DNA of 45,342 nucleotides, from contig CAMDQN010000049.1 of assembly GCA_945905925.1 (NCBI GenBank), positions 1 to 45,342 on the forward strand, given 5' to 3'. The notes beneath the pieces are model-generated. The model saw nothing but the letters and a program-made list of their open reading frames with translations, was not told the origin of the DNA and searched no databases. The translations under genes were made by a program, and so were the position numbers. Positions 331-33,476 of the stretch are shown in pieces (the first letter of the stretch is position 1; each line of letters opens with the position of its first letter). The DNA is from Singulisphaera sp. GP187. Its GTDB lineage: Bacteria; Planctomycetota; Planctomycetia; Gemmatales; Gemmataceae.

Positions 331-1221
331 ATGTCCACAGAAACACTCGCAAACCGCGACCCACATGTCGTGGCGCTCACCGCTGCGCTCACCGCGCCTT
401 TCGAGCCGCGCGAGGTGAAGTTCAAGCCGCAGATGGTGAAGAACAACCGCTGCCTCGCGATGGCGTACATCGATGCCCGACTCGTGCAAGAGCGCCTCGA
501 CGATGTCCTCGGCTCGGAGAACTGGGAAGATCTTTACAAGCAACTCCCGGACGGCTCCGTCATGTGCCGGTTGCGCGTCAAGTTGGGTGATCGGTGGGTT
601 ACGAAAATGGATGTCGGTTCACCGAGCGAACAGCCCGATCAGGGCGACCGACTAAAAGCGGCCGTAAGCGACGCACTCAAGCGAGCCGCTGTGAAATACG
701 GCATCGGGCGCTACCTCTACCGGCTCTCGGCGCAGTGGGTGGATTACGACCCAATCAAGAAGCAGATTGTTTCGCCGCCGCAATTGCCCACGTTCGCGAT
801 CCCAAAGGCGAAAACCCAAGTTCCCGTGCCTGCGAAGTCCGGGTTCGTTGCGACCGAACCGAAGCTCGAACCGAGTCGGCAAGAAGCGCCGCGGGTCGAT
901 GCCCCAACACCGGTCGCGACGAAACCGGAAGCGCCAAAGGAAGAACCACCCAAGCCCGACGCGGCAAAGGCCGCGAACCTGCCGTCAAACGGGCCAGAGT
1001 TGCACCGGCGGTTGCGCGAGTACGACGCTAAACTCGCGTCGCAGAAATTGTGCCCTGTCGGTGCGCTCCTAGCACACGTCACACAGGCCGGGGTGAAGGC
1101 TGGTTTCACCGCGAACATGAGCGAATGGAACGGCCCCGCGATCCAGTTCGCGGTCGATGCGGTGCGCGAGTTCGACCAGACCGCGCGACAGGGTAAGCCC
1201 GAATCCCGCACCGCGGCATGA
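331..1221 (+). CDS. Rad52/Rad22 (DdrA-like) single-strand annealing protein
   Basis: The product is 296 aa with a predicted Rad52/Rad22-type annealing domain in roughly residues 15-145. The visible family features are an early lysine-rich segment (VKFKPQMVKNNRCLAMAYID), then VQERLDDVLGSENW, then a beta-rich stretch ending in DRLKAAVSDALKRAAVKYG-IGRYLY. Proteins of this family, including Deinococcus DdrA, bind single-stranded DNA ends and promote annealing in recombination or damage tolerance. Residues about 150-225 are a Pro/Lys/Ala-rich linker, followed by a small helical tail of unknown role. The start is supported by GGAGGG five bases upstream. The gene stands alone and no recombinase neighbour is visible, so it could be chromosomal repair machinery or an old phage acquisition. 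Confidence 0.75.
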   Translation: MSTETLANRDPHVVALTAALTAPFEPREVKFKPQMVKNNRCLAMAYIDARLVQERLDDVLGSENWEDLYKQLPDGSVMCRLRVKLGDRWVTKMDVGSPSEQPDQGDRLKAAVSDALKRAAVKYGIGRYLYRLSAQWVDYDPIKKQIVSPPQLPTFAIPKAKTQVPVPAKSGFVATEPKLEPSRQEAPRVDAPTPVATKPEAPKEEPPKPDAAKAANLPSNGPELHRRLREYDAKLASQKLCPVGALLAHVTQAGVKAGFTANMSEWNGPAIQFAVDAVREFDQTARQGKPESRTAA

Positions 1222-3527: not shown

Positions 3528-4304
3528 TCACAGCACCGGTGGGAGTGGTAGGACAGGCAGGTGTTCGGCCGGTTCGGGGGCGTTCAGAACCTCGTCGGGC
3601 ACGTCCTCGGTGTACTTGCACACCGAGACGACGCCGTTGAGAAGCGTCAGGTAGTGACACGGTTTCTCGGTCCAGCACCCGCTGTTGTAATAGTGAACTG
3701 GGCCGGTCGTGTTCGCGACTGGTTGGTGGGTATGACCGCAACACACCGCGTCGCACCCTTTCCGCGCCGCGTACTTCACCGCATCAATTTCGATCTTCTG
3801 CACGCATCGCAGAAACGTCTTGCTGCGCCGCTTCGCGAACTTGGCGAACGTGTGTGACTTGTCGATGCGCTGAAGGAAATTGTACACGCGGTCCGCGACC
3901 CACGTGATGAGCGGGTAGCGTGAGATGAACTCGTCGAACCGGTGGCCGTGGAGGAACATGATGTTTCGCCCGCCGCTCTCGACGACGAGTTCGTCGGCGC
4001 AGCGGACGCCGAGCAGGTGCGACACGATTTCGGCCGGTCCGTCGTGGTTTCCGTTGATCCAAACCACTTCCATCACGTCCGCGAGTTTGCGAATCTCGGA
4101 CAGAATCTTCCAGTGATGCTTTTTGAGCCTTCGAAAGTCGATTGAGTCAAAGACATCGCCGTTCAGGATGAGTTGCTTCGCCCGCAGGTCGCGCTTCCTG
4201 ACGTTGGCGAGGAAGTGAACGAGGGACTTCGCCTGGCAGTTATCACTGCCGAGGTGGATGTCGGAGATGACAATGGCGTCAAACACGGGGCACCCCCTCG
4301 CCAA
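3528..4304 (-). CDS. Metallophosphoesterase, LpxH/YbbF-like
   Basis: The product is 258 aa with all calcineurin-like phosphoesterase motifs in order: SDIHLG (14-19), GDVFD (about 49), GNHD (about 84), LHGHRFD (about 117) and GHTH (about 190). These residues coordinate two metal ions and mark a hydrolase for phosphoesters. The arrangement and length resemble UDP-2,3-diacylglucosamine hydrolase-like proteins, which act in lipid A synthesis. Many relatives have other substrates, so LpxH activity is only a possibility. No signal peptide is seen and the protein is probably cytoplasmic. It converges on the MFS gene with one base between stop codons and no terminator between them. Confidence 0.85.
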   Translation of the reverse strand: MARGCPVFDAIVISDIHLGSDNCQAKSLVHFLANVRKRDLRAKQLILNGDVFDSIDFRRLKKHHWKILSEIRKLADVMEVVWINGNHDGPAEIVSHLLGVRCADELVVESGGRNIMFLHGHRFDEFISRYPLITWVADRVYNFLQRIDKSHTFAKFAKRRSKTFLRCVQKIEIDAVKYAARKGCDAVCCGHTHQPVANTTGPVHYYNSGCWTEKPCHYLTLLNGVVSVCKYTEDVPDEVLNAPEPAEHLPVLPLPPVL

Positions 4305-4728: not shown

Positions 4729-7347
4729 ATGCCGCCTGGAATCCGCACTCGCGCGCTTCCGCTCGCGCCGTTGCTGACCGCGTTCCGCGTCGGTGACGCT
4801 CCCGCACCTCGCGCGAAGTCCGAAACACGCATCGCGTTCCTCGACAACGCGACGGACGATCAGCTCACGACGACGCTGCTTGCGCTCGCGAACAGCGCAC
4901 TCCCGGTCATTTTCCACGCCGAAGTTTTCACGCGGCGAGTGCGGTTGATTCGCCACGCGCTGAATCACCTCTTCCGTTCCACGGACCCGCTGTCGGAACG
5001 TCTCGCTCGTTGCGTTGTTCCTGGCGAGGTGTATTTCGTTGCGGGGTTGGGCCCGGGGTTCTGGTCCGCAGTCCTCGCGGGCACTTCCCCGACTGACACC
5101 CCGGTTTGGTGCCCCGCCGTCGAACGCGGATTGCTCCGATTGGGGCTTCTCCGCGAGATCGCGGCCGACGTGCGTTCCAGGTTCGACGCGGTGTCCTGGG
5201 CGTGTCAGAAGATCCGCGAAGAGGCTCCCGATCTGACCGGCGACGCGCTCGCCGCGTTCCTCGAACGGGTGTCGCGCGTGATTGGTCGCGAGTTACCGCC
5301 CGGCGACGCGGCATCATTTGCGTTCGCGTGGGCCGTGACCCCGGCGAAAATCGAACAAGCGGTGCGTGAGGTGCGGTCGCGCGTTCCGTTGCGAAAGCGA
5401 ATCCGCGCCACGACGGACGAACAGGCCGCCGCAATCGGCGCGTTCCAAAGCGCGACGAAGGCCGCCGACTACGCGACCGCGTTCGCAGCGTTCCGTAAGG
5501 GCTACCCCGATTCGCGCTGGGAAGCGGCGCTACCCGCGATCGACGACGCGTATTCCGCGGCGCTGCCCGAAAAAGGCCGGGCGGAGTTATGGTGCGAAGT
5601 CGCGTCGGTACTGCGTGAGCGATTTCGGGTTCACCCGCTCGAACTCGCGGACGTGGTTCAGTCGGTCGCGGACGCGGGCGTAACGGAACCCGAGCACGAT
5701 GCGTTCGACGGCTTCTGCTCGGACACGTTCGCGTTCCTTCACGAACTCGCGGAAACGAACGCGAAGGACTGGATGACCACTCACCGCGAGCGTTACCAGT
5801 TCGTGCTGCGCGAGCCGCTGGTGGAACTGTGCGAAGCGGTCGCGGATCGCTACGTGCGCCCGGTACTGAACCGCGAACACGGTTGGGACTTGGAGTGCGA
5901 CGCACGCACCGGCCGCGCGGTCACGAGCATCTGCAAGAACGACTTCGGTCGCAGCGGGCCGTACCAGCCGGTGCAGTGGATCACGTTCTACCGCCGGGCG
6001 CAGTCAAACAAGCGCGCGGACTCGCAGTTCTTCGTGCGGGTCGCGCCAGAAGGCGTCCGCTACGGGTTCCATTTGGGCCGGATGGCGCGCGACGCGGGCA
6101 AGCAATTCCGGCGCAACATTCAGGCACACGCGGACGCGATCTACCGCGCGCTGCAAGCCGGCGACGCGTTCCGCGAGTGCCGGTTCTGGACCGGTGACGA
6201 CCTCTCTGCCGAAGTGTCTGTGAAGTCCGCCGCAGAGTTGCGTGAGTGGGCCGTCCACAAGACGATCGCGGTCGGCAAGCAACTCGAACCGTCCTCTCCC
6301 CTGCTCCGCCGCGACGAACTCACCGGGGACATTCTCCTGACGTTCGACCGCTTGTTGCCAGCGTTCGCGTGCGCCGCGGAAGCCGATCCTTTGCCGCTTC
6401 TCGCCAGGCGTGCTGGCGCGCCCGAAGGCCCGCCGCCTTACGACCCCATCTCGTTCCACCGCGAAACATTCCTTTCGGAAGTATGGCTCGACCGCGTCCT
6501 CGGGCTTCTACGCCTGAAGAAACAACTCGTGCTCCAGGGCGTGCCCGGCACCGGGAAGACGCACGTCGCGCGCTGCCTCGCGCGCCTGCTCACGCACGAC
6601 CGCGCCGACTGCGTTCGCCTGGTGCAGTTCCATCCGGCGTACAGCTACGAGGAGTTCGTCGAAGGAATTCGCGCTCGCGGCGCCGAGGTGAACGGCAAGA
6701 ACGAAGTCACGTTCCCGGTGGAAGACGGCGTGTTGTGTCAGTTCGCGGAACTGGCGCGATCGCGCCCGAGCGAACCACACGTGCTGATCGTGGACGAACT
6801 GAATCGCGGGAACCTGCCGCGCATCTTCGGCGAGTTGCTTTACCTGCTCGAGTACCGCGACCAGGCGGTGACGCTCCCGTACTCGAAGCGCGCGTTCAAG
6901 TTACCGGACAACCTGTTCCTGCTCGCGACGATGAACCAACTCGACCGCTCCGCGGTGGCGCTCGACCAGGCGCTGCGTCGTCGATTCTCATTCGTGGACA
7001 TGCCCGCGGATGCGGCGGTTCTTGCGTCGTGGCTGGAGTCGCGCCCCAGTGCGGAACCGGGCGACGCGACGTTCGGCCCTCGCGTCGTGTTGCTCTTCGA
7101 GGAACTTAACCGCCGGTTGGCGCGTGACCTCGGCCCTGAGAAGCAGGTGGGGCACAGTCTGTTCATGATGCCGGACCTGGACGCGGAGCAACTCGCGGCG
7201 GTGTGGGAGCATCACGTCCGACCGTTACTGCTCGACTATCTCGGCGGGCGCAATGACCGGTTGAAGGACTACACGCCCGAGCGATTGCTTGGCGAGCGCA
7301 CGGCGAAGCGGCAAAGGGTGAAGCCCGCCACCGACACCGGAGACTGA
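4729..7347 (+). CDS. DUF2461-McrB fusion: AAA+ motor of an McrBC-like system
   Basis: The product is 872 aa from ATG 4729 (TTG 4726 is a possible alternative). Residues about 1-320 are unassigned. Residues about 325-490 resemble DUF2461, with FAFLHELAETNAKDW, HRERY, then REPL. The C-terminal third is an McrB-type AAA+ domain: Walker A GVPGTGKT at 604-611, Walker B LIVDELNRGN with D689, the MNQLDRS signature at about 735 (equivalent to the GTP-recognising MNxxD of McrB), and DQALRRRFSF with the arginine finger. McrB proteins form rings that hydrolyse GTP and drive an McrC nuclease to cut modified DNA; the N-terminus normally reads the modification. No EVE, YTH or DUF3578-type reader is recognised here, so residues 1-490 may be a new target-recognition module. 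An McrC gene lies two genes downstream. Confidence 0.82.
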   Translation: MPPGIRTRALPLAPLLTAFRVGDAPAPRAKSETRIAFLDNATDDQLTTTLLALANSALPVIFHAEVFTRRVRLIRHALNHLFRSTDPLSERLARCVVPGEVYFVAGLGPGFWSAVLAGTSPTDTPVWCPAVERGLLRLGLLREIAADVRSRFDAVSWACQKIREEAPDLTGDALAAFLERVSRVIGRELPPGDAASFAFAWAVTPAKIEQAVREVRSRVPLRKRIRATTDEQAAAIGAFQSATKAADYATAFAAFRKGYPDSRWEAALPAIDDAYSAALPEKGRAELWCEVASVLRERFRVHPLELADVVQSVADAGVTEPEHDAFDGFCSDTFAFLHELAETNAKDWMTTHRERYQFVLREPLVELCEAVADRYVRPVLNREHGWDLECDARTGRAVTSICKNDFGRSGPYQPVQWITFYRRAQSNKRADSQFFVRVAPEGVRYGFHLGRMARDAGKQFRRNIQAHADAIYRALQAGDAFRECRFWTGDDLSAEVSVKSAAELREWAVHKTIAVGKQLEPSSPLLRRDELTGDILLTFDRLLPAFACAAEADPLPLLARRAGAPEGPPPYDPISFHRETFLSEVWLDRVLGLLRLKKQLVLQGVPGTGKTHVARCLARLLTHDRADCVRLVQFHPAYSYEEFVEGIRARGAEVNGKNEVTFPVEDGVLCQFAELARSRPSEPHVLIVDELNRGNLPRIFGELLYLLEYRDQAVTLPYSKRAFKLPDNLFLLATMNQLDRSAVALDQALRRRFSFVDMPADAAVLASWLESRPSAEPGDATFGPRVVLLFEELNRRLARDLGPEKQVGHSLFMMPDLDAEQLAAVWEHHVRPLLLDYLGGRNDRLKDYTPERLLGERTAKRQRVKPATDTGD

Positions 7348-7429
7348 ACGGTGTCTGCGCGTCGCGAAACCGCCTGGCGGTACCGACGTCTCTCACACGA
7401 CCCACTTCAAAACCAGTAGAGACCTGCAC

Positions 7430-8902
7430 GTGACCGACGAAGACGAAGACTTCACGCCACCGTTCCCGCGTTCCCGATTCCGCTGGGTACGGAAGCTCGC
7501 GATGTGGTGTCTCGGCTTCACCGCGGTTCTGGTGATGGTGCTTTACGTCAGCCGGTGGCAAGTTGGCCGAATCGGACAACGCCAGTTCGACGCGACCACG
7601 CAGCGTCTCGATGCCGAAGACCCGGACTGGCGGCTCGATGCAATTCTCGACGCTCGCAGCAAGAACGAACCGGCCGCGAAGGACAACGCCGCGCCAGAAG
7701 TTCTCGACCTCGCAGAGCAGATTCCAATGGAGTTTCGCAACTGGCAAAAGTCCGAAGACGCGACCCAGTTCTGGCGCCGGAACCCCAACTACCAACTTCC
7801 GCCGCCGGACGCGGTCGCCGCCGCGCGCAAGGTCGCCGGACCGACGTTGCTTCTCCGCACGGAGACGCTCAGGTTACGCCACAGGCGCGCCGGACAGTTC
7901 CCGCTCACCGTCACGGCCGACCCGCTCGCGACCGCACTCCCGCACCTCGACATGTCGCGCCAGGTCGTCGCGCTGCTCCAGTTCGACGGCTACCTCGCGC
8001 CGATCGAGAAGAACCCGAACCGCGGCGTCTCGTCCGCGCGTGCGGCGATCGGTGTCGCACGCGCCATTGGTGACGAACCGATCTTCGTTTCGCAACTCGT
8101 GAGGATGGCGGCTGGGAAGGTCGCGGCACAGACCGCGATGCAAGTGCTCGCGTGGGGCGAACCGACCGACGGCCTCGCGGAACTGCAAGCCGAACTGCTC
8201 ACGGAAGCCGAGGCGCCGTGGTTTCGCATCGGGATGCGCGGCGAACGCGGGTTTCTCGATCAGGTGTTTCAGAGACTGAGCGACGGCACAATCCCGCCGG
8301 AACACGTCTTCAACCACTCGGAAACCGGGAACACTGGACCGCAATACCACGCGCTGCTCCGCGCGTACAAGGCGCTGCTGCCCGGCGACCACGCGAAGTG
8401 CCTTCAACTCTGCACAGAATACGTCGCGGCTTCCAAACTACCGCCACACGAACAACTCGCCGCGCTGAAGGCAATCGTAATCCCGCCGGGACCGCCGGAA
8501 GAGTTCCGCTACGTCATCACGCGGCTACTTCTCCCTGCGTGCGAGAAGATCGCGGAGGCCGGACTTCGTACTCGCGCGGACCTGCTCGCGGCTGCAACGT
8601 GCGTCGCGTGCGAGCGGTTCAGGCTGAAGCATGGACGGTTCCCGCACAACCTCGCGGAACTGACACCAACGTTCCTGGTCGCTGTGCCGCTCAGCCCATT
8701 CGACGGCAAGCCGATCAGTTACCGCGTCCTTCCGGGTCGCGTCGCGGTATACTCCTTCTGGGACAACTCACCCATGAAGATCGACCACTCGCACGACGAT
8801 TTCCGCGAAGGCGACACACCCGGTTTCAGCGTAGGCTACCGCCTGTGGAACCCAGCACAACGCGGCCTACCAGCGCCCGTCGAGGAGAAGCAAGACCCGT
8901 GA
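7430..8902 (+). CDS. Membrane-anchored protein with pseudopilin-like tail, in the McrBC-like operon
   Basis: The product is 490 aa starting at GTG 7430. An acidic N-terminus is followed by one transmembrane helix (about residues 25-44, MWCLGFTAVLVMVLYV) and a long helical soluble part. The last 120 residues (AAATCVACERFRLKHGRFP, then NLAELTPTFL, AVPLSPFDGKPISYR, AVYSFWDNS) match the pattern seen at the ends of many planctomycete and verrucomicrobial proteins that resemble GspG-like pseudopilin tails. No enzyme motif was found. It begins 82 bases after the McrB-like gene and overlaps the McrC gene by GTGA, so co-translation with the nuclease is likely. This would be an unusual third component for an McrBC system; alternatively it is a resident gene caught in the operon. 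Confidence 0.7.
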   Translation: MTDEDEDFTPPFPRSRFRWVRKLAMWCLGFTAVLVMVLYVSRWQVGRIGQRQFDATTQRLDAEDPDWRLDAILDARSKNEPAAKDNAAPEVLDLAEQIPMEFRNWQKSEDATQFWRRNPNYQLPPPDAVAAARKVAGPTLLLRTETLRLRHRRAGQFPLTVTADPLATALPHLDMSRQVVALLQFDGYLAPIEKNPNRGVSSARAAIGVARAIGDEPIFVSQLVRMAAGKVAAQTAMQVLAWGEPTDGLAELQAELLTEAEAPWFRIGMRGERGFLDQVFQRLSDGTIPPEHVFNHSETGNTGPQYHALLRAYKALLPGDHAKCLQLCTEYVAASKLPPHEQLAALKAIVIPPGPPEEFRYVITRLLLPACEKIAEAGLRTRADLLAAATCVACERFRLKHGRFPHNLAELTPTFLVAVPLSPFDGKPISYRVLPGRVAVYSFWDNSPMKIDHSHDDFREGDTPGFSVGYRLWNPAQRGLPAPVEEKQDP

Positions 8903-10059
8903 CGAGAACGGTAACTCTCGTCGAACGTCGTCCGCGTGCGGTGCGACTCCCGCGCGCGGAGGTCGATTTCCTCCTCGCGCACGCGCGCCATCTCATCGAA
9001 GTCACGCCCACATTCGAGCGCGGAACTTTCACACTCACCCCGCGCGGCTACGTCGGCTTCCTCACCGGGCCGACGACGCGCTACGCGATCCGCCCGAAAA
9101 TCCCGTGGCCCAACCTTCAACTGCTCCTCGGTTTCCCGCGTGACACCGGTGACGACGCGCGCGAAACCGAAGGCGGGTTACTCGCGGTTCTCGCAACCGC
9201 GTTCGCCGAGCGCCTCGAAGCCGTCACGCGCGAAGGTCTGGTCGCGGGATACAGCGATGTCGAAGCGGTGTCGTCGTTCCTGCGCGGAAAGCTCCGCACG
9301 GCCGACCAGATGCGCGACATCGCGGCCCGCGCCTTCCCCGACCGTTTCCACATCAACGAACCGGTCTTCGATCTGAACACACCATGGAACCAAATTCCGA
9401 AAGCAACCGCGACCGCCCTCCTCCGCGGTCCCGTCCTTTCGCTCGCACTCCGGCAACGCATCGAAGCGGCTATGGCGCCGCTCGCTACCGTACCCGACGC
9501 ACCGGTGAGTGATGCCACGTTCCACGCCGCACTCACCGAGGCGCGCGCCGCGCACTACCGCTCACTGCTTGACGCGTGCCGAATGATTCTGTGCGGTCCC
9601 ACGAGCCACGACCCACACGCCAACGGAGGAAGTGCGTTCCTGCTCGATCTCGGGCATGCCTTCGAGCAGTATCTGACGACGGCGCTTCAGAACGAGTTCG
9701 CCGCGCGCCCGGCGTGGCGGGTCGAATCGCAGCCCGACTTCGCGATCGGGCCGACGACGCTCACGCCCGACATCGTCATACGCAAACACGGCGCGGCGCG
9801 AACCGTCCTCGATACGAAGTGGAAAACGACGACGCTCGACGCGAACGACCTTCACCAGATACTAGCCTACGCGACCCTCACCGGCGCTCGCCACGTCGGG
9901 TTGGTGTATCCCGGGCGCACCGACGCCCGCGCACACTTCACCACGCCCGACGGCCGCGTCCGGCTGTCGCGATACCGCGTGCGCGTGATCGGAACTGCGG
10001 CAGAACTGGCATATTCCATCAAGAGGCTCGCCCGCGCAGCCGCAAGCGGCACAACGTGA
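8899..10059 (+). CDS. mcrC: McrC-family nuclease
   Basis: The product is 386 aa from GTG 8899, which overlaps the preceding stop codon (GTGA) and has AGGAG eleven bases upstream. The N-terminal half is the McrC adaptor region with TLTPRGYVGFLTGP and a stretch on FLRGKLRTADQMRD, typical of McrC/LlaJI-like proteins. The C-terminal half carries a PD-(D/E)xK nuclease core, TPDIV with D291 and then VLDTKWK with D305 and K307. McrC binds the McrB ring through its N-terminal part and cuts DNA. The intact catalytic residues suggest an active nuclease. Longer frames reaching back to 8152 lie inside the previous gene and have no homology, so they were not used. Confidence 0.85.
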   Translation: MTRTVTLVERRPRAVRLPRAEVDFLLAHARHLIEVTPTFERGTFTLTPRGYVGFLTGPTTRYAIRPKIPWPNLQLLLGFPRDTGDDARETEGGLLAVLATAFAERLEAVTREGLVAGYSDVEAVSSFLRGKLRTADQMRDIAARAFPDRFHINEPVFDLNTPWNQIPKATATALLRGPVLSLALRQRIEAAMAPLATVPDAPVSDATFHAALTEARAAHYRSLLDACRMILCGPTSHDPHANGGSAFLLDLGHAFEQYLTTALQNEFAARPAWRVESQPDFAIGPTTLTPDIVIRKHGAARTVLDTKWKTTTLDANDLHQILAYATLTGARHVGLVYPGRTDARAHFTTPDGRVRLSRYRVRVIGTAAELAYSIKRLARAAASGTT

Positions 10060-10319: not shown

Positions 10320-10955
10320 ATGCATGTCGGCTCCTACTCAGCCCTGGACGCGAGCGTCTTGGTGCTGAACAAGACGTTCGCGGCCGTCCACGTCATCTCC
10401 GTCCGCCGAGCGTTCTGCTTGTTGTGCAAGGATCTTGCCGAAGTTGTCAGCATGGAAGAGGGACAGTTCTCGACCTACAACTTTGAGTCGTGGTCGGAGC
10501 TGAGTGCCTTCCGCGCCGCCAACTTCCGGCAGGAAGACGACGACTGGGTTCGCACCTCAAACTCCGAGTTGCTGTCGCCGCGCGTCATCCGGTTGTTGAG
10601 CTACGACAAGATGCCGAAGCAGACGGTGAAGTTCAACCGACGCAACATCTTCGCCCGCGACCACAACCAGTGCCAATACTGCGGGAAACGGTTCCCGACG
10701 ACGGAGTTGTCGCTGGACCACGTCGTGCCGCGTAGCCAGGGCGGTGGCACCACCTGGGACAACATCGTGTGTGCGTGCGTGGACTGCAACGTCCGCAAGG
10801 GCGGTCGCACCCCGCGTCAGGCGAACATGACGCTGATCCGCAAGCCGGAGAAGCCGAAGCGCAGCCCGATGCTGAACCTCAAGCTCACGCAGAAGAAGTA
10901 CTCCTCGTGGCAGTCCTTCATCGACAACGCCTACTGGAACGTCGAACTGAAGTGA
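10320..10955 (+). CDS. HNH endonuclease
   Basis: The product is 211 aa, starting MHVGSYSALDASVLVLNKTF. The C-terminal half is an HNH domain of the zinc-ribbon type: C118-x2-C121 (CQYCGKRF), then LDHVVPRS with D133-H134, GGTTWDNIV with the Asn, and a second Cys pair in CVDCN. This layout is that of the HNH family related to McrA and to proteins widespread in bacteria, with an N-terminal region opening LNKTFAAVHVISVRRA. It is predicted to be a metal-dependent DNA nickase or endonuclease. Its substrate is unknown. Despite lying next to the McrBC-like operon it has its own promoter, and homologues are often plain chromosomal genes, so a defence role is uncertain. Confidence 0.85.
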   Translation: MHVGSYSALDASVLVLNKTFAAVHVISVRRAFCLLCKDLAEVVSMEEGQFSTYNFESWSELSAFRAANFRQEDDDWVRTSNSELLSPRVIRLLSYDKMPKQTVKFNRRNIFARDHNQCQYCGKRFPTTELSLDHVVPRSQGGGTTWDNIVCACVDCNVRKGGRTPRQANMTLIRKPEKPKRSPMLNLKLTQKKYSSWQSFIDNAYWNVELK

Positions 10956-11062: not shown

Positions 11063-13198
11063 TCAGATTCGATCGAGCGAGTCCGCCCAGTTCAGGAAGT
11101 CGTTGAAGGTCTTCACATCGAAGTACTCCTTGCCCGATTCCTTCATCTCGCGGAAGATCACCGGGAACCGCTTCTCCATGAGCAAGTTCTTGCTCTCCAC
11201 GATATCCTTGATGAGCGGGTCTTTGTCGCCGCCGCTGATGAAAAACGCCAGTGGTTGGTTCGCGATGTTGTCCTTCGGCGGGTTGCCCAGAATCGCGCCC
11301 ACGGTGCAGACGCCGCGGAACACGTCGCGCGCGTTGAACCCGACGTAGAACGCCATCTCGCCGCCGTTGGCCTGACCGTGCGCGATCACCCGCGTCCGGT
11401 CAATCGTGTACTGGCCGATGACGGTCTTCACGTCCCGCACGACCACTTCCGTCTCGTTCGCCTTCCAACCGGTTTCGGCGCTCGCCTTCGGCCCCATGAT
11501 GATGAAGTGGTTGTCCGCGGCGAAGTCCTCGAACGTCTTCGCCATCCTCTCGCCGTCCTTGCCGCCCTGCCCCGCCTGGTGGAACCACACGATCAAGCCG
11601 TGCGACACCTTCGGATCGTAGTTGTCCGGCACGTACACCCAGTACTCGCGCCCGAGTGCTTCGTCGGTCCGCGTCATGTAACCGGTCTCGAGCTTCGGCT
11701 TCTCTTTCTTGTCGTCCTTCTTCTCCTCCTGTCCGCCGAGGTCGGCGCGAACGTTGAGCGGCGGCTTCGGCTCTTCCTTCTTCGGTTCTTCCTTCTTGCC
11801 GGTCGCGGGCGGCAGCTTTTCGGGAATCTCGTCGGGCACAGGCACGAGCTTCGCCTGCACCGTTTCGACCTTCCCGCCGTCCTTGCGCTTCACCTCGACC
11901 TTCACCTCGGCACCGGGCGCGAGGCGCTGAATCGCGGCGATGAACGCGGCGCGGTTCGCGACCGGCGGCGGTGCGGGCAGCGCCGCCGGTCCGAACTTCA
12001 TGATGCGGTCACCGGCTTTGATCCCCGCGACATCGGCCGGGCTTTTCGGATACACGAAGCGGACTTCGACACCCGGACTCGCGTCATCGCGCATCGGTAG
12101 AATGCCGAAATACGCGGCGACGTAGGCGGTCGTCGTGCCGAGGAGCTTCACGCTCTTGAACTCCATCTCCTTGTCGCCGCGCAGCACCTTCAGCGCGAGT
12201 TCGTCCGACTCGTACATCGGCCCCATGATGTGCTGGAGCGTGGAGTAGTTCGGAACCTTCTTACCGTTGATCTCGGTGATCTTATCGCCGACCTGAAGCC
12301 CGGCCCGCGCGGCCGCGGAGTCCGGTTGAATCGCCCCGATAACCGGGACCGCGTTGTACACGTCGGTCCCCTGCGGCGACACGCCGAGCAGCCCGCGGCG
12401 AAGGTCTTTGCCTTCCTTCAGGCGCGGCAGCGTCGCGAGGACATCTTCCAGCGGTACCGCGAACCCGATGCCGCCGTCGTACACATCGACACCCGCAGTT
12501 TCGCCTTCGGCGCGGTTGCTCGCGGGGACGACAACGCCGTACACGCGGCCGTCGATGCTGACGAGCGCCCCGCCGTAGTTCACCGGCGATGTCTTAGCGT
12601 CGGTCTGGATTGCCTTGCCCCAGATGCGGTTGGTCGCGCTCACGATGCCTACGCTCATCGACGGCGGGTGATCCACGTTGTTGTCGAGCGTGCGTCCCAG
12701 CGTCAGCCCCCACTGACCGACTTCCACGTCCTTCTTCGGGAACACATCGGGCACAGTCAGGTCTTTCGCGTCGATCTTGAGGAGCGTCAGCATACGCGTC
12801 TGATCGTTCGCAACGATCTTCGCGACGAGCCGCTGCGGTCGCCCCGGGATCGTGACGAAGATGTCCGTCGGCTTATTCGAGAAATTGAACGCGCTCGAAA
12901 TGATGTAGCCATCCGCGGAGACGACAAGGCCGGTCGTCGGACCAACGCCTTTGCGGATACCGGCCGCAGGCGGTCCCGGAGGCCCGCCCTTCTTCGGCGC
13001 GACGAGTGTCGTCTCGGCGCCGCCGGCGGTTTCGATCTTGACGATGGCCGGCGCGACCTTGGCAGATGCCGCCTTCATCGCCTTTTCAGTGGCGTCGTTG
13101 AGGTCCGGCTTTGGTTGTGCGGAAACCGGCGCCGCGAGTAGAGCCACGGCAACAACCGCGACCCACGGCCGTGCGGCATTCGGAATGGTGATCTTCAT
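11063..13198 (-). CDS. Exported HtrA/PDZ-esterase fusion with degenerate active sites
   Basis: The product is 711 aa from ATG 13198 (an in-frame ATG at 13255 adds 19 residues before the signal peptide). Residues 1-27 are a Sec signal ending PVSAQ. Residues about 40-270 align with the trypsin-like domain of HtrA, but the expected His is F104, the Asp is M136 and the Ser is Y208 (PVNYGGAL in place of GNSGG). One or two PDZ domains follow (about 275-470), then a Lys/Pro/Glu linker. A C-terminal alpha/beta-hydrolase esterase-like domain follows, where the nucleophile motif reads AHGQANGG with A610 in place of Ser. Both enzyme domains therefore look inactive, suggesting a binding or scaffold role in the periplasm. 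It is the last gene of the long minus-strand array. Confidence 0.75.
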   Translation of the reverse strand: MKITIPNAARPWVAVVAVALLAAPVSAQPKPDLNDATEKAMKAASAKVAPAIVKIETAGGAETTLVAPKKGGPPGPPAAGIRKGVGPTTGLVVSADGYIISSAFNFSNKPTDIFVTIPGRPQRLVAKIVANDQTRMLTLLKIDAKDLTVPDVFPKKDVEVGQWGLTLGRTLDNNVDHPPSMSVGIVSATNRIWGKAIQTDAKTSPVNYGGALVSIDGRVYGVVVPASNRAEGETAGVDVYDGGIGFAVPLEDVLATLPRLKEGKDLRRGLLGVSPQGTDVYNAVPVIGAIQPDSAAARAGLQVGDKITEINGKKVPNYSTLQHIMGPMYESDELALKVLRGDKEMEFKSVKLLGTTTAYVAAYFGILPMRDDASPGVEVRFVYPKSPADVAGIKAGDRIMKFGPAALPAPPPVANRAAFIAAIQRLAPGAEVKVEVKRKDGGKVETVQAKLVPVPDEIPEKLPPATGKKEEPKKEEPKPPLNVRADLGGQEEKKDDKKEKPKLETGYMTRTDEALGREYWVYVPDNYDPKVSHGLIVWFHQAGQGGKDGERMAKTFEDFAADNHFIIMGPKASAETGWKANETEVVVRDVKTVIGQYTIDRTRVIAHGQANGGEMAFYVGFNARDVFRGVCTVGAILGNPPKDNIANQPLAFFISGGDKDPLIKDIVESKNLLMEKRFPVIFREMKESGKEYFDVKTFNDFLNWADSLDRI

Positions 13199-13261
13199 CG
13201 GAGGAGACTCGTGGCTGTCGGTGTCTTGGTTTAGCGTTGGCCCCGGCGGGGCCACAGGGAA

Positions 13262-14413
13262 TTACGGCTTCGGCGCAGGCACCTTGGGCTTCGGCGGGTG
13301 CTGCCCGAGTGTCATCTCGATGCTCTGCAGCGACTCACCGCGGCGCACTTCGAGCACGATCTTCTGGTTCGGACGTGTGAACTTCCTCATGTACTCGTCG
13401 AGCGCCTTGATGCTGATGATTGGCTCGCCGTCGATGAAGCTCACAAGGTCGTCGGGCCGCAAGCCGGCCTTGTCCGCTGGCGAACCCGGCACCACATCCT
13501 CGACGTAGGCGGGCGTGCGTTCGAGAATGTTCGGTACGAAGATGATCCCGTGATAGCCGCCCAGCCCAAGGGGAATCAGGGTTTTATCGACGGGCGTTTT
13601 GTAGCCCGCCCCCTTCGTTACAAACTCCTCCATCGACACGGTGACAGTCTTCTCCTGCTCCACGTCCTTGCCGTCCTTGTCTTTCACCGTGATCGTTGTC
13701 TTCAATGTCATCTTCGCGTTCATCGGGATGGCGTAGTTCATCCACGTCTCGGTGAGGCTGTTCTTCAGTTCGCGGCCGATGATGCCGAGCAGTTCGCCCT
13801 TCTTGTCGAGCAGCGCGCCGCCGGCGGCACCGGGGTTGTTGGTGATCGCGTCCACCATGTACACGTCGCCGGTGTACGGGAACTCGAAGATGCCGCGCCG
13901 CCCGGCCATCTTCGTGTACGCGGAGATCACCCCACGTTGCACGCTGAGCGGTTCGTCGCGGAGCGCAATCTCGAACGTGTTACTCATCCCGAGGATCCAG
14001 TCGCCCGCCGCCGCCGGAGGGCGTCTGACGGCGGTAAGCGCGTCGAAGAAGTCCAAATCCAGCCCGCTGTCCTCGTCGATCTTCTTCCCCTCCACGCGAA
14101 TTTTGATCAGCGCGACATCGAGCAGAGGTTCGGTCACGATGACTTGCGCCTTCATGCGCTGCCCGTCATACAGGTGAACGACGAGTTCGGATGTGTCGAG
14201 CAGTTGGCTCGCGACGGTCAGGATGTGGCCGTCCTTGCTGATGATGATCCCGGTGCCGTAGTTGTTGAGCCGGGCGAACCCGCCCGCACCGAACACTTTA
14301 ACGAGCTTCTTGTTCGCTTTCTCGACCGTGTCCGCGAACGGGTCGGCCGCAGGCGCGAGTGCCGGCGCGCCGAACAGCGCGACGACGGTGAGGAGGGTGT
14401 ATCGTGTGAACAT
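13262..14413 (-). CDS. Exported HtrA-like PDZ protein, catalytic residues lost
   Basis: The product is 383 aa with a signal peptide (MFTRYTLLTVVALFGAPALA). Residues about 30-215 follow the trypsin-like HtrA fold: DGHILTVASQ puts S69 where the catalytic His should be, LLDVALIKI keeps the Asp (D99), and NNPGAAGGAL puts A197 where the Ser should be. The C-terminal part (about 295-370) is a PDZ domain: the segment opening AYVEDVVPGSPADKAGLRPDD matches the usual carboxylate-binding loop and helix. It should fold but not cut, so it may bind peptides or regulate the active paralogue upstream. It sits between an active and another inactive paralogue, suggesting tandem duplication and divergence. Confidence 0.78.
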   Translation of the reverse strand: MFTRYTLLTVVALFGAPALAPAADPFADTVEKANKKLVKVFGAGGFARLNNYGTGIIISKDGHILTVASQLLDTSELVVHLYDGQRMKAQVIVTEPLLDVALIKIRVEGKKIDEDSGLDLDFFDALTAVRRPPAAAGDWILGMSNTFEIALRDEPLSVQRGVISAYTKMAGRRGIFEFPYTGDVYMVDAITNNPGAAGGALLDKKGELLGIIGRELKNSLTETWMNYAIPMNAKMTLKTTITVKDKDGKDVEQEKTVTVSMEEFVTKGAGYKTPVDKTLIPLGLGGYHGIIFVPNILERTPAYVEDVVPGSPADKAGLRPDDLVSFIDGEPIISIKALDEYMRKFTRPNQKIVLEVRRGESLQSIEMTLGQHPPKPKVPAPKP

Positions 14414-14440
14414 GGTTCGGGTGTCGTGGTGTTGGGTTGT

Positions 14441-14527
14441 GGCGAGCAGGGGGCGTCAGCCCTCCGAGTCTTCGCGAAGGTATAGATGTTGTGGGAACGC
14501 TCGGGGGGCTTTCGCCCCCCACTCGCC
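14441..14527. repeat. Intergenic palindromic repeat, family A copy 1
   Basis: The element starts GGCGAGCAGGGGGCGTCAGC and ends with GGGGGGCTTTCGCCCCCC followed by ACTCGCC. Its ends GGCGAG and CTCGCC are inverted, and each half holds its own palindrome, one a perfect seven-base GC stem. A related copy is at 25167-25248 in another spacer of the same gene array. It contains no gene. It resembles REP/BIME-type dispersed repeats. Confidence 0.65.
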
Positions 14528-14532
14528 TCAGA

Positions 14533-16353
14533 CTACTTGTTCAGCATCCACTTCGTGGGGGTGAGTACCGCGTAGCGCTTGTCGCCGTGGCGCACCTCGA
14601 TGCGGCCCGGCAACTTGCGCCCGTCCACGTCCTTGTAGTCGCTGAAGAAGACTTCGCACGGGTCCGCTTCGTCTGGGTCTTTCGAGTCCTTCGCCAAGTA
14701 CGCCTCGAACCCGAGCAGCATGCTGTCCTTCAGCGAGAAGTACCACCGGCAGTTGACGGAACCGTGCTTGGTCAGAATCACGGCGCAGTCCACGCGTAGC
14801 GAGGCGAGCGACTTCGGCGCCGAGCCGTCGGTCGGGAACGGGTAGAACGGCTCGTTACCGCCGTGCGCGAACCCGCCCTCGAAGCCCTTCTCGCCAAGCG
14901 TCAAGAACCGGTGGTAGTGGTACATCGCCATCATCAGCCCGCCGCTGCCCAGCGGCATCTTCTGCAGCGCGAGTTCGTTCTGCTTGAGCGGTTCGAGCGT
15001 CGTCTCGATGTTCATCTTCAAGGTCACCTTCGCGGTGTCCTTGTTCTCAACAATCTCTGCCTTCAGCGAGCCTTCGCGGTCCGGCATTTTGTAGGCGCCT
15101 TCGATGACCCACGCGCCCGGGACCGTTGAGAAGTCGCCGTGCTTCTTGAACGCGGTCAACAAGTTATCGCGTTCCAGCACGTTGAAATACCAGTTGGAAT
15201 AGCCCTTCTTCGTCTGATACATCTTCGCGCTCTCGCCGCTGCCCTTTGGCATGGGCGCCTTCGGTGGCGGGGGGCCCTTCGGCGGCTGCTCAGCACCCGG
15301 CGGCTTCTCCTTCTCGACGTCTTGGTTCCCCATCAGCCGGACGAGCATGTCCTTCGTCTCATACCCGACCGCGACCTTGCGCCGCACCGTCAGCGGCACG
15401 CGCCACTCCTTCGGGAAGATGCCGAGTACGTTCTTGTAGTTGTTCGTGCTACCGACCGGCCGGCCGGCGAAGTAGGTCAACTGGTCGCCGTCCAGAACAC
15501 CGCGACGAAAGGCATCGCTTTCATCGAGGATTTGCTTCACGATCACCGGCGGCAGTGGCGCGTCGTCGTTCGCGGACCCGACCGCGGCGCCGAGCGTTGC
15601 GTGGTCCGAGTCGATCCCGGCCCGCAAGTGGCCCATGAAGTTCTTGATTTGGTTCACCGAGATCGCGTAGCCGACGCCGGAGTTCACGCGACCGCGCTTC
15701 TCGAACGACCCGCGACCGTTGATGCCGATCAGTTCACCCTGCATGTTGAAAAGCGGCCCACCGGAGTTGCCCGGATTGATGGAAGTCTCGATCTGAATGC
15801 AGTCGGTGTACTCCAGAAGCCCCTTGCCTTCGGGCGGCTGGTAGCGGTTGACGCCGCTCACGAGGCCGTAGGTGACGGTGGGCGTGAAGTCCATCGCGAG
15901 CGAGAACGGGTTGCCCATCGCGAGCGACCAGTCCCCAGCGCGCACTTTGTCGCTATCGCCGAGCGCCACGAACGGGAACGGTTTGCCCTTCTCCTTCGGC
16001 AGCAACCGGATCATGGCAACGTCGCCGACCTTGTCGATGCCGCACACGACCGCATCGTAGAGTTGCCCGTCGGCAAGCCCGGCTTGCATGAGCGGGCCGG
16101 TCGGCTGCACGACGTGGAAGTTCGTCAGCGCGTAGCCGTCCGGGCTAATGATGACGCCTGATCCGACGCCTTGCCCGCCCTGCATACACACCGCGACGAT
16201 GGCTGGGTGAACCTTCTTGATCGTGGCGATGCGCTGCGCCTGCGCGTCGAGGACGGACTTGTCCACGTCGATTGGCGCGGCCGGTGCGGAGGGCACCAGA
16301 GCCGTGGCGATGGCGAGAACCGCAGCGACTACAGGAATAAGGAGTCTGGTCAT
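14533..16353 (-). CDS. HtrA/DegP-like serine protease, active type
   Basis: The product is 606 aa from ATG 16353 (MTRLLIPVVAAVLAIATALV, a Sec signal); an in-frame ATG at 16437 lies inside a repeat and adds a basic, non-signal stretch. The trypsin domain has a full triad: H80 in ALTNFHVV, D111 in GDVAMIRL and S197 in NPGNSGGPL. A PDZ-like segment (about 260-345) follows. After a Pro/Lys-rich linker there is a C-terminal domain of about 230 residues of unknown type, with no family recognised. It is predicted to degrade or refold misfolded periplasmic proteins. GGAA about ten bases before the ATG is a modest ribosome site. It is the first of three tandem HtrA-like genes and the only one with catalytic residues. 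Confidence 0.82.
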   Translation of the reverse strand: MTRLLIPVVAAVLAIATALVPSAPAAPIDVDKSVLDAQAQRIATIKKVHPAIVAVCMQGGQGVGSGVIISPDGYALTNFHVVQPTGPLMQAGLADGQLYDAVVCGIDKVGDVAMIRLLPKEKGKPFPFVALGDSDKVRAGDWSLAMGNPFSLAMDFTPTVTYGLVSGVNRYQPPEGKGLLEYTDCIQIETSINPGNSGGPLFNMQGELIGINGRGSFEKRGRVNSGVGYAISVNQIKNFMGHLRAGIDSDHATLGAAVGSANDDAPLPPVIVKQILDESDAFRRGVLDGDQLTYFAGRPVGSTNNYKNVLGIFPKEWRVPLTVRRKVAVGYETKDMLVRLMGNQDVEKEKPPGAEQPPKGPPPPKAPMPKGSGESAKMYQTKKGYSNWYFNVLERDNLLTAFKKHGDFSTVPGAWVIEGAYKMPDREGSLKAEIVENKDTAKVTLKMNIETTLEPLKQNELALQKMPLGSGGLMMAMYHYHRFLTLGEKGFEGGFAHGGNEPFYPFPTDGSAPKSLASLRVDCAVILTKHGSVNCRWYFSLKDSMLLGFEAYLAKDSKDPDEADPCEVFFSDYKDVDGRKLPGRIEVRHGDKRYAVLTPTKWMLNK

Positions 16354-16368
16354 GGGTGTCTTCCGTAG

Positions 16369-16468
16369 GTGCCGCTTGCCGAGCGGCACGGCTATGCAAC
16401 TCAATTCGTTTCGGGATGGTCCGTGTCTCGCAAACACGGGGTATCGCGTGCCGCTCGGCGAGCGGCAC
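16369..16468. repeat. Compound inverted repeat in the spacer before the HtrA gene
   Basis: Two 22-base arms, 16369-16390 and 16447-16468, are reverse complements with one mismatch. Each arm is itself a palindrome: GTGCCGCT, a short loop, AGCGGCAC. Between them a third hairpin (CCGTGT at 16421, ACACGG at 16434) is seen. The right arm abuts the stop codon of the NPCBM-like gene. The design resembles a REP pair or small non-autonomous element rather than a terminator. Confidence 0.7.
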
Positions 16469-32319: not shown

Positions 32320-32329
32320 CTCAGAAACT

Positions 32330-32415
32330 CGGAATGCGGAGTTCGGAACGCGGAACTGAAACAACGGTGGAGCGTTCGGGAATGCCGCGGTATTCGTTCC
32401 GCGTTCCGCATTCCG
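32330..32415. repeat. Inverted repeat of GGAATGCGGAACGCGGAA type
   Basis: The left arm (32330-32355) and right arm (32397-32415) match as reverse complements over 19 bases, with a seven-base extra segment (GTTCGGA) in the left arm. The unit GGAAnGCGGA is repeated within the arms. It occupies the spacer between DUF58 and BatA genes and can fold into a long hairpin. Confidence 0.55.
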
Positions 32416-32423
32416 CGTTGGGG

Positions 32424-33371
32424 TTAGCGGCGGGCGGGGTTGGCCCGCGTCGCCATGCGCTGGAACAGGAACTTCGAGAGGACCGCGTCCATGTAGTCAC
32501 TCGTGCGGAGCAGCGTGTAATCGACGCCGATCCGCGTACACCCGCGGCGCACTTCTGTCAGGTAGAGTTCCAGTTCTTCGAGGTAGCCTTCGCGGAGCGC
32601 ACGCGGATCACAAAGCAAATCCGGTTGGGCTTCGAGTCCCTCAAACTTCGTCATCCCAGAGAACGGGAACAGGAGTTCGTCGTCGTCGAGGATGTGGAAC
32701 GCCATCACGTCGTGGCGCCGGTGGCGGAGCATCTCCAGACCCTTGAACAGCGATTCGCGGTCGCAAAGGAAGTCCGAGAAGATCAGGACGAGGCCACGGT
32801 TGGGCATGGCCTCCGCGACCTGCCGCATGATCTTCAGGATGTCGGTCTTCTCGCGCGGGTTCGAGACGTGGAGCGCCTTGGTGACGGCGTCCATGTGTCG
32901 AACCGAACTGCGCGGCGGGATGGCCTCGCGCACGTCCGAGTCGAACGTGATCAGGCCGCACGAATCCTGTTGTTTCACCGTGAGGTACGCGAGGCACGCG
33001 GCGGCTGTCGCGACGTAGTCGTACTTGTAGAGCGTGCCCGCGCGGCGGTGCTTGTCGATTCCGTAGAGCATGGACTCGCTCGCATCAACCACCACGTAAG
33101 AGCGGAGGTTGGTTTCCGCTTCGTATTGCTTGATGACGAACTTGTCGGACCGCTGCCACACCTTCCAGTCGATGCGGCGGAGGTCGTCGCCCGGCATGTA
33201 CTCGCGGTGCTGGACAAACTCGACGCTCTGCCCATACACGGGGCTTTTGTGCATTCCCGAGATGAACCCCTCAACCACCTGGCGCGCCCGCAGGTCAAGC
33301 TGCGAGATGCGAGCGATGACCTTCGGGTCGAGATACCGGCGCGGGTTGTCGGAGTCGGATTTCTTCGCCAT
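32424..33371 (-). CDS. DUF58 protein of the MoxR system
   Basis: The product is 315 aa. The DUF58 signature is clear at about residues 50-80: REYMPGDDLRRIDWKVWQRS. It is followed by a vWA-like segment beginning VVVDASESM (D-x-S-x-S metal site) and GLVLIFSDFLCD. The protein is soluble in prediction, with no signal peptide. DUF58 proteins act next to MoxR ATPases and BatA/B proteins in membrane-complex maturation; the exact substrate is unknown. The gene starts 105 bases after the MoxR stop, and that spacer holds a strong hairpin. Confidence 0.88.
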   Translation of the reverse strand: MAKKSDSDNPRRYLDPKVIARISQLDLRARQVVEGFISGMHKSPVYGQSVEFVQHREYMPGDDLRRIDWKVWQRSDKFVIKQYEAETNLRSYVVVDASESMLYGIDKHRRAGTLYKYDYVATAAACLAYLTVKQQDSCGLITFDSDVREAIPPRSSVRHMDAVTKALHVSNPREKTDILKIMRQVAEAMPNRGLVLIFSDFLCDRESLFKGLEMLRHRRHDVMAFHILDDDELLFPFSGMTKFEGLEAQPDLLCDPRALREGYLEELELYLTEVRRGCTRIGVDYTLLRTSDYMDAVLSKFLFQRMATRANPARR

Positions 33372-33389
33372 GCTCGTGTTTGGTGTTTG

Positions 33390-33472
33390 GTGTTTAGTGT
33401 TTGGGAAGACAGTTTGGTGTGATATTTCGCGCCCATCAAGGCGTGCGAAACATCACACCAAACACTAAACAC
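33390..33472. repeat. Nested hairpin of CAAACAC repeats
   Basis: A 15-base outer pairing (GTGTTTAGTGTTTGG at 33390 with CCAAACACTAAACAC at 33458) competes with an inner 11-base pairing (TTTGGTGTGAT at 33413 with ATCACACCAAA at 33452), since both use the same right-arm bases. Inside is another six-base stem (TTTCGC with GCGAAA). Two alternative folds are possible. It lies between MoxR and DUF58 genes. Confidence 0.6.
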
Positions 33473-33476
33473 GGCC

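What the first reader, a model, noticed from the sequence alone, without database searches (positions are those of the whole stretch)
4729..10059. McrBC-like operon with a DUF2461-AAA+ fusion and an extra membrane gene
The motor gene has full McrB motifs (GVPGTGKT, LIVDELNRG, MNQLDR, an R finger) and the third gene is an McrC nuclease with D291, D305 and K307. In place of a known modified-base reader the motor carries about 320 unassigned residues plus a DUF2461-like domain. A membrane protein gene is wedged between motor and nuclease. Known McrBC operons have two genes and place the reader on McrB. This could be a new class of targeted nuclease, perhaps membrane-located, sensing something other than 5-methylcytosine.
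Basis: partly seen in the sequence, partly recalled or inferred. Interest (0 to 1): 0.82.

Follow-up and report, generated by a model that had tools for sequence, protein, structure and literature searches.

The report
McrBC nuclease with glycosylase-like DNA reader
A Gemmata-type bacterium carries a DNA-cutting defence-type machine of the known McrBC kind, but its recognition part looks like a dead DNA-repair glycosylase joined to an uncharacterised domain, and it is kept as an almost fixed part of the genome in its relatives, which suggests a new way of spotting altered DNA.

Summary
The operon is real: motor 4729-7347, membrane gene 7430-8902, McrC 8899-10059. The motor is a true McrB GTPase (best solved match E. 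coli McrB, 7e-43) and McrC keeps its catalytic residues. The 'unassigned' 320 residues are no longer blank: AlphaFold (pLDDT 94) gives an HhH-GPD DNA-glycosylase-like repeat (8-oxoguanine glycosylase, Z 9.1), duplicated, without the catalytic Lys/Asp (0 of 25). Then comes DUF2461 with the DUF1054 fold (Z 19) and a weak likeness to E. coli's McrB methylcytosine reader (Z 5-6). Profiles place the repeat in McrBs of three further phyla, in some beside EVE or MrcB_N readers; DUF2461-McrB-McrC operons also occur in Chloroflexota, Acidobacteria, Cyanobacteria and Verrucomicrobia. In the window's genus McrC is in 19 of 19 genomes and the motor in 17, at one conserved locus. The membrane gene is optional (0-4 copies; absent in 5 of 23 loci) and its family also lives without McrBC, so 'membrane-located nuclease' is not supported. 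Best reading: a vertically kept Type IV-like restriction system with a new composite base reader. Target unknown; general 5mC or N6mA restriction is unlikely, because hosts carry such methyltransferases. New variant of a known kind.

The parts
4729..7347 (+). McrB-like motor gene: two glycosylase-like repeats, DUF2461, McrB GTPase (872 aa)
4747..5322 (+). N-terminal HhH-GPD glycosylase-like repeat 1 (residues 7-198); HhH motif GLGP at residues 106-109, no catalytic Lys (110) or Asp (128)
   Evidence: AF2 model pLDDT 94.3; 3knt Z 9.1, 3n0u Z 8.3; residue counts; profile alignment with glycosylases of the same bacterial family P 0.004, controls P >= 0.098
5341..5676 (+). second, shortened copy of the repeat (about residues 205-316)
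   Evidence: repeat 1 versus repeat 2 profile comparison P 4.2e-8, 94.9%; helical in the model
5701..6390 (+). DUF2461 domain, proposed base reader (residues 325-554); lacks the RDxRF signature of stand-alone DUF2461
   Evidence: Pfam, 22 of 22 relatives; 2a8e Z 19.0; signature counts
6463..7182 (+). McrB AAA+ GTPase domain (Walker A, Walker B, NxxD, arginines)
   Evidence: NCBIfam NF008457 8.2e-39, under its cut-off; E. coli McrB 6hz4 7.3e-43; motifs
7430..8902 (+). membrane gene, 490 aa: one N-terminal TM helix, helical repeat body predicted outside the cytoplasm; optional, 0-4 copies in relatives
7487..7555 (+). predicted TM helix (residues 20-42), more positive before than after
   Evidence: hydropathy
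8899..10059 (+). McrC nuclease gene (386 aa), start overlaps the membrane gene's stop
   Evidence: PF10117 1.8e-36 at 9043-9912; D291, D305, K307 and Q320 kept in 36 of 37, the other cut off
3528..4304 (-). metallophosphoesterase, divergent upstream flank, conserved in many relatives
10320..10955 (+). HNH-domain gene, conserved downstream flank

Best explanation
A Type IV-like, McrBC-family restriction system with a new composite reader. The DUF2461 domain, helped by two catalytically dead glycosylase-like repeats, binds DNA and inspects or flips an altered base. GTP-driven McrB rings then engage McrC, whose PD-(D/E)xK nuclease cuts the DNA. Shown here: the domain make-up, intact GTPase and nuclease residues, and a shared history of motor and McrC at a fixed locus. 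Inferred: DNA and base reading, GTP-driven assembly, and cutting of foreign modified DNA. The membrane proteins are a lineage-expanded, optional family inside the operon and are probably not needed for cutting.
For: Motor AAA matches E. coli McrB at 7.3e-43. Of the Gemmataceae motors aligned, Walker A is in 36 of 36 that cover it, Walker B and NxxD in 35 of 36. McrC active site kept in 36 of 37, the other cut off. Motor and McrC distances agree, r 0.974, 0 of 2000 permutations. The one motor with broken Walker B and NxxD, L078, sits in genome G067, where no McrC was found. Fold matches: DUF1054 Z 19.0 and 16.4; Ogg2-type glycosylases Z 9.1 and 8.3, then EndoIII-3, MagIII and MutY; McrB-N reader Z 5.2-5.9. 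The repeat occurs in 27 of 49 non-Gemmataceae McrB N-termini (55 of 77 in all), with 0 of 770 shuffled decoys, in four phyla, beside EVE in L133 and L136 and MrcB_N in L150. DUF2461-McrB in other phyla: 9 loci plus one of unnamed phylum; McrC next door in all but that one; membrane gene in none. Fused DUF2461 lacks RDxRF in 39 of 39, 16 of 16 stand-alone ones keep it.
Against: No binding or cutting was tested. The glycosylase match is moderate: Foldseek E 0.23, Z 9 on an all-helical domain (the tool warns below about 13), profile probability only 8%; the second repeat against the glycosylase profile gives only P 0.16. Queuine-salvage DUF2419 enzymes score like the lower glycosylases (Z 4.8). 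The McrB-N likeness is weak (Z under 6). Near-universal presence in the genus is unlike a typical mobile defence system. Motor and McrC are unlinked in several relatives. G008 has an intact motor and no McrC found, though its motor lies at a contig end and the genome is 87% complete. Of the ten outside fusions, four did not reach Pfam's DUF2461 model at E 0.01 and two were not scanned.
Confidence: 0.6

Rival explanations
1. A housekeeping DNA-damage nuclease: the glycosylase-like repeats find oxidised or otherwise damaged bases and McrBC cuts damaged or foreign damaged DNA, so the role is genome care and not phage defence.
For: McrC in 19 of 19 and motor in 17 of 19 genomes of the genus, one McrC each, the two motor misses 65% and 68% complete; concordance with the flanking HNH gene r 0.858; nearest glycosylase folds are 8-oxoguanine glycosylases; third-position GC of the motor like its neighbours.
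Against: No catalytic residues for base excision; a processive double-strand nuclease is a dangerous repair tool (inference); 57 of 95 family genomes show no motor.
Confidence: 0.17
2. One reading: a membrane-located targeted nuclease in which the membrane protein is an essential third subunit.
For: Membrane genes lie between motor and McrC in 18 of 23 contiguous loci, overlapping McrC's start in the window.
Against: Absent in 5 of 23 loci that have motor and McrC side by side; absent from the 10 DUF2461-McrB loci outside Gemmataceae; family found with no McrBC gene in 19 of 20 stretches; predicted to face outwards.
Confidence: 0.06
3. A co-opted McrB machine with a non-restriction role (for example in division or chromosome handling), as reported for PcdA.
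For: Precedent PcdA, an McrB-family division protein (PMC10602043, abstract and outline read); near-core presence and envelope-type genes in the operon.
Against: PcdA is described as structurally changed and divergent, whereas here GTPase and nuclease residues are intact.
Confidence: 0.07
4. DUF2461 or the repeats are enzymes acting on DNA bases, and McrBC cuts the product.
For: Glycosylase and DUF2461 folds; stand-alone DUF2461 has a strict charged signature that could be catalytic.
Against: Glycosylase Lys and Asp positions empty in 25 of 25; RDxRF missing in 39 of 39 fused forms.
Confidence: 0.05

Closest known systems
E. coli McrBC (Type IV, ADAM/DUF3578/MrcB_N reader)
   Different: MrcB_N is not among the 17 Pfam families of the window motor; two extra glycosylase-like repeats; extra membrane gene; kept at a fixed locus
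McrB with YTH, EVE/PUA or B3 readers (T. gammatolerans, S. marinus, LlaJI)
   Same: modular reader swapped ahead of the same motor (PMC7680126 and PMC12707154, passages read)
   Different: reader fold here is DUF2461/DUF1054 plus HhH-GPD-like repeats
CoCoNuTs and CoCoPi
   Same: McrBC relatives with accessory genes, one type with transmembrane and pilus-assembly links (PMC11090510, passages)
   Different: NxxD and not NxD motif; nuclease active site intact
Ogg2-type 8-oxoguanine DNA glycosylases (HhH-GPD)
   Same: fold of residues 7-198 (Z 9.1, 8.3) and the HhH GxG motif
   Different: no catalytic Lys or Asp; duplicated; fused to a motor
DUF2461 / DUF1054 stand-alone proteins
   Same: Pfam family and fold
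   Different: fused forms lack RDxRF (0 of 39 against 16 of 16)

Membership tests
McrBC (Type IV restriction) | McrB-type AAA+ GTPase with NxxD | tested here: met
   NCBIfam McrB match is under its curated cut-off
McrBC (Type IV restriction) | McrC with PD-(D/E)xK active site | tested here: met
   PF10117 over cut-off; D, D, K, Q in 36 of 37, the other cut off
McrBC (Type IV restriction) | motor and nuclease in one operon | tested here: met
   23 contiguous loci; unlinked in others
McrBC (Type IV restriction) | known modified-base reader (MrcB_N, EVE, YTH, B3) | tested here: inconclusive
   no such Pfam match in the window motor; McrB-N fold likeness Z 5.2-5.9 to the DUF2461 part
McrBC (Type IV restriction) | modification-dependent cutting, GTP-dependent | not testable with these tools
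   needs bench assay
CoCoNuT | NxD GTPase motif | tested here: not met
   TMNQLD in the window; NxxD in 35 of 36 motors that reach it
HhH-GPD DNA glycosylase | HhH-GPD fold | tested here: inconclusive
   Z 9.1 and 8.3 on a helical domain, profile P 0.004 against controls >= 0.098
HhH-GPD DNA glycosylase | catalytic Lys and/or Asp of the HhH-GPD motif | tested here: not met
   K 0 of 25, D 0 of 25 at the equivalent columns; positions recalled and matched by the alignment
DUF2461 (PF09365) | profile match over the curated cut-off | tested here: met
   61.4 bits against 22.8; a match in 22 of 22 relatives at E up to 5
DUF2461 (PF09365) | RDxRF signature seen in stand-alone members | tested here: not met
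   0 of 39 fused, 16 of 16 stand-alone from Planctomycetota

The most novel reading that the evidence does not exclude
Dead DNA-glycosylase folds have been recruited as damage- or modification-sensing heads of an McrBC motor nuclease, and Gemmata-type bacteria keep it as a near-core genome-surveillance machine that destroys DNA carrying oxidised or exotic bases, with optional envelope proteins in the same operon linking it to the cell surface.
Probability: 0.15. Interest if true: 0.85.

Novelty: new variant of a known kind. Interest (0 to 1): 0.58.

Why it matters
It adds a reader architecture for McrBC motors: DUF2461 in several phyla, and glycosylase-like repeats plus DUF2461 in Gemmataceae. 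DUF2461 turned up in only 3 papers of the held library and in none together with McrBC. If base reading is confirmed, DUF2461 gains a function, glycosylase folds become a source of readers without catalysis, and near-universal vertical retention of a Type IV-like nuclease becomes a testable puzzle.

Tried and rejected
Horizontal, mobile defence island: rejected for the genus, since the locus lies between the same flanking genes and motor, McrC and HNH distances agree. Whether PADLOC knows it: the motor's AAA part matches Type II REase models (best 1.1e-14) and weaker ATPase models; McrC and the membrane protein match nothing. Membrane protein identity: no Pfam; the structure search gave mainly designed helical repeats, Z up to 10.1, so no known fold is claimed; a likeness of its C-terminus to GspG pseudopilins is recalled only and no Pfam model supported it. 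PDB sequence search with the repeat profile found nothing relevant; with DUF2461 nothing. Ogg2 model NF002305 in 119 phylum genomes gave one weak match, so a general HhH-GPD profile was used instead. Stricter iteration (Z set to one million) kept only 28 of 77 N-termini, 27 Gemmataceae and L141; the looser run with decoys gave 55, best decoy E 0.09. Phylum search: 31 of 392 genomes match; besides the window's own, the listed matches cover the DUF2461 part only, mostly in frames of about 230-330 aa that look like stand-alone proteins; L173 is a DUF2461-AAA fusion. The 16 stand-alone proteins are those of L173-L191 with a profile match and under 330 aa; longer ones were dropped. Methyltransferase exclusion test: no exclusion seen, 18 of 38 against 20 of 57 (tallied by hand); N6/N4 methyltransferases in 94 of 95, so neither generic mark is a good target guess; sequence-context dependence is not excluded. 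Phage and plasmid searches used one DUF2461 query (L124): 8 plasmid and 4 phage records. A search for Gemmata with McrBC and restriction listed 2 papers, neither on this by title.
Full report
What is there. Three genes run in one direction: a motor gene (ATG 4729, TTG 4726, to 7347), a membrane gene (GTG 7430 to 8902) and McrC (GTG 8899 to 10059), the last overlapping the membrane gene's stop by four bases. Pfam finds DUF2461 and an AAA_5 domain in the motor and McrBC/PF10117 in McrC, and nothing in the membrane protein. NCBIfam's McrB model matches the motor at 8.2e-39 and its McrC model matches McrC at 1.6e-9, both under their curated cut-offs (133.6 against 637 bits, 37.3 against 338).

Motor and nuclease are canonical. 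The AAA part's best solved relative is E. coli McrB (7.3e-43). Among 37 Gemmataceae motor sequences aligned (two of them pieces of one genome's motor), Walker A is in 36 of 36 that cover it, and Walker B and NxxD are in 35 of 36. McrC D291, D305, K307 and Q320 are kept in 36 of 37 aligned McrCs; the remaining one, L085, is cut off by a contig end. The one motor with a broken Walker B and no NxxD, L078, is in genome G067, where no McrC was found. That is a single case that points towards a working pair. Against it, G008 has an intact motor and no McrC found, but its motor lies at a contig end and the genome is 87% complete.

AlphaFold2 on residues 1-554 with 39 sequences gave mean pLDDT 94.3 and pTM 0.89. 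Residues 325-554, the DUF2461 domain, match DUF1054 proteins 2a8e (Z 19.0, 2.8 A, 201 residues) and 3mqz (Z 16.4), then 1yb3 (Z 6.9); nine McrB DNA-binding-domain entries follow at Z 5.2 to 5.9 with 115-132 residues at 3.7-4.3 A. That last likeness is in the range that the tool calls middling, so I use it as a hint only. Foldseek alone gives 2a8e at E 2.3e-3 and no match at 0.001 or better. Residues 7-198 match 8-oxoguanine glycosylases 3knt (Z 9.1, 4.2 A, 164 residues) and 3n0u (Z 8.3); EndoIII-3, MagIII and MutY entries follow at about 3.4-5.4, with queuine-salvage DUF2419 entries among them at 4.3-4.8. For a helical domain Z 9 is moderate. Foldseek gives these two E 0.23 and 0.42 with probabilities 0.97 and 0.93. 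A profile comparison with HhH-GPD proteins of 13 genomes of the same family aligns the HhH motif exactly at P 0.004 but with only 8% probability. Eighteen comparisons of the three repeat profiles with six unrelated profiles gave P 0.098 or more. At the catalytic Lys and Asp positions of that motif there is no Lys and no Asp in 25 of 25 sequences, while R75, C95, Y102, G106, G108, W112, W127 and R187 are invariant. Which residues are catalytic in known enzymes is recalled; the alignment places the EndoIII-type Lys and Asp on residues 110 and 128. A second copy of the repeat follows (about residues 205-316 in the window, longer in relatives): P 4.2e-8, 94.9% between the two copies. On its own the second copy matches the glycosylase profile only at P 0.16.

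The modules elsewhere. The named-genome scan kept the best 80 of 112 relatives, found through AAA-domain patterns; 77 of them have an N-terminal part to test. An iterated profile of the repeat, run with 770 shuffled decoys, finds it in 55 of these 77: in 28 of 28 Gemmataceae and 27 of 49 others, with no decoy below E 0.01. A stricter run kept 28, all Gemmataceae but one. The others are Actinobacteria, where it lies just before the AAA domain, Myxococcota and one Nitrospinota. In L133 and L136 an EVE domain lies between two copies; in L150 an MrcB_N reader precedes it. DUF2461 thus occupies a slot that known readers can occupy. DUF2461-AAA fusions outside Gemmataceae in that set: nine in other named phyla (L121, L122, L124, L125, L128, L129, L164, L166, L171) and L126, whose record names no phylum; McrC lies directly downstream in the nine and was not found by L126; the membrane gene is in none. 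Pfam's DUF2461 model is met by 4 of the 8 that I scanned (L121, L124, L126, L164); L128, L129, L166 and L171 rest on my own profile (L129 reaches E 0.014), and L122 and L125 were not scanned. In 392 genomes drawn from the phylum, 31 match; apart from the window's genome the listed matches cover the DUF2461 part, mostly in short frames, with L173 a DUF2461-AAA fusion. The signature RDxRF is in 16 of 16 stand-alone Planctomycetota DUF2461 proteins and in 0 of 39 fused ones, so the fused domains have probably left the ancestral function or changed it.

Distribution. In 95 genomes of the family the motor's N-half is in 38 and McrC in 41. In the window's genus the motor is in 17 of 19, the misses being 65% and 68% complete and two of the 17 being pieces at contig ends (G017, G021), and McrC is in 19 of 19, one each. 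The order metallophosphoesterase (divergent), motor, membrane genes, McrC, HNH recurs. Over 21 loci, pairwise distances of motor and McrC correlate at 0.974, and motor and HNH at 0.858, with 0 of 2000 permutations as high. Third-position GC of the motor (0.80) is like its neighbours. This is vertical inheritance, not a recent arrival. Against tidy linkage: in several relatives motor and McrC are apart, with solitary, catalytically intact McrCs at L213-L217, and in G087 about 9 kb and an inversion separate them.

The membrane gene. Of 23 loci with motor and McrC contiguous, 5 have no membrane gene, 7 have one, 9 two, 1 three and 1 four. Three of the 14 such loci in the window's genus have none (L060, L061, L066). 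Relatives occur elsewhere, singly or in tandem; of 20 stretches fetched around them, 19 show no McrBC gene, some of them being short contigs and some from genomes that have McrBC elsewhere. An N-terminal TM segment passes the hydropathy threshold in 25 of 27, two of which (both in L112) show a weaker second one; the flank before it is more positive than the one after in 24 of 27, which puts the body outside the cytoplasm. The model (pLDDT 90.3) is a helical repeat body with a small C-terminal sheet and no clear known fold. I read it as an optional, lineage-expanded passenger or envelope add-on, not as a nuclease subunit.

Target. C5-methyltransferases are in 18 of 38 genomes with the motor and 20 of 57 without it (tallied by hand), and N6/N4 methyltransferases in 94 of 95. 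Thus common methylation marks are tolerated in general, though a sequence-context rule, as in E. coli McrBC, is not excluded. The target stays open: an exotic phage base or a damaged base is my guess by exclusion.

Literature. Known McrB readers named in the papers that I looked into are ADAM/DUF3578, YTH, EVE or PUA-like, and B3 (PMC7680126 and PMC12707154, passages; PMC11090510, passages and section 6). DUF2461 is in 3 papers of the library (listing only), with McrBC in none, and TIGR02453 in none. HhH-GPD and McrB together occur in one plant paper (listing). The main text of the McrBC census names no DUF2461, Gemmata or HhH; its supplements could not be read, so it may list such fusions there.

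Verdict. It is an McrBC system with a new composite reader, near-core in its genus. It is a new variant of a known kind; the reading of a modified or damaged base is inferred and not shown.

Noticed in passing
window 331-1221 (+): Rad52/22-family strand-annealing protein gene about 3.5 kb upstream of the motor; its conservation beside the operon was not checked.
   Followed up: no
window 29332-34535 (-): MoxR-type AAA gene and a BatA-type gene in one stretch, a typical MoxR-vWA kind of operon (the operon type is recalled).
   Followed up: no
L192-L211; genome G071 with 12 matches: The membrane-protein family occurs singly or in tandem away from McrBC across Gemmataceae and has no Pfam family.
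   Followed up: partly
L213-L217: Solitary McrC genes of this type, unlinked to the motor, one (L214) still beside the HNH gene.
   Followed up: partly
L133, L136, L150, L144: The glycosylase-like repeat is an unnamed McrB module in four phyla, with EVE or MrcB_N readers in some proteins.
   Followed up: partly
Leptolyngbya boryana plasmids NZ_AP014640.1, NZ_AP014644.1, NZ_CP092421.1, AP018205.1: DUF2461-like match inside genes annotated as AAA family ATPase or ATPase on plasmids.
   Followed up: no
L078 (G067): Motor with degenerate Walker B and NxxD in a genome with no McrC found.
   Followed up: yes
window 11063-16437 (-): Three trypsin-like protease genes in a row, two with PDZ domains.
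   Followed up: no
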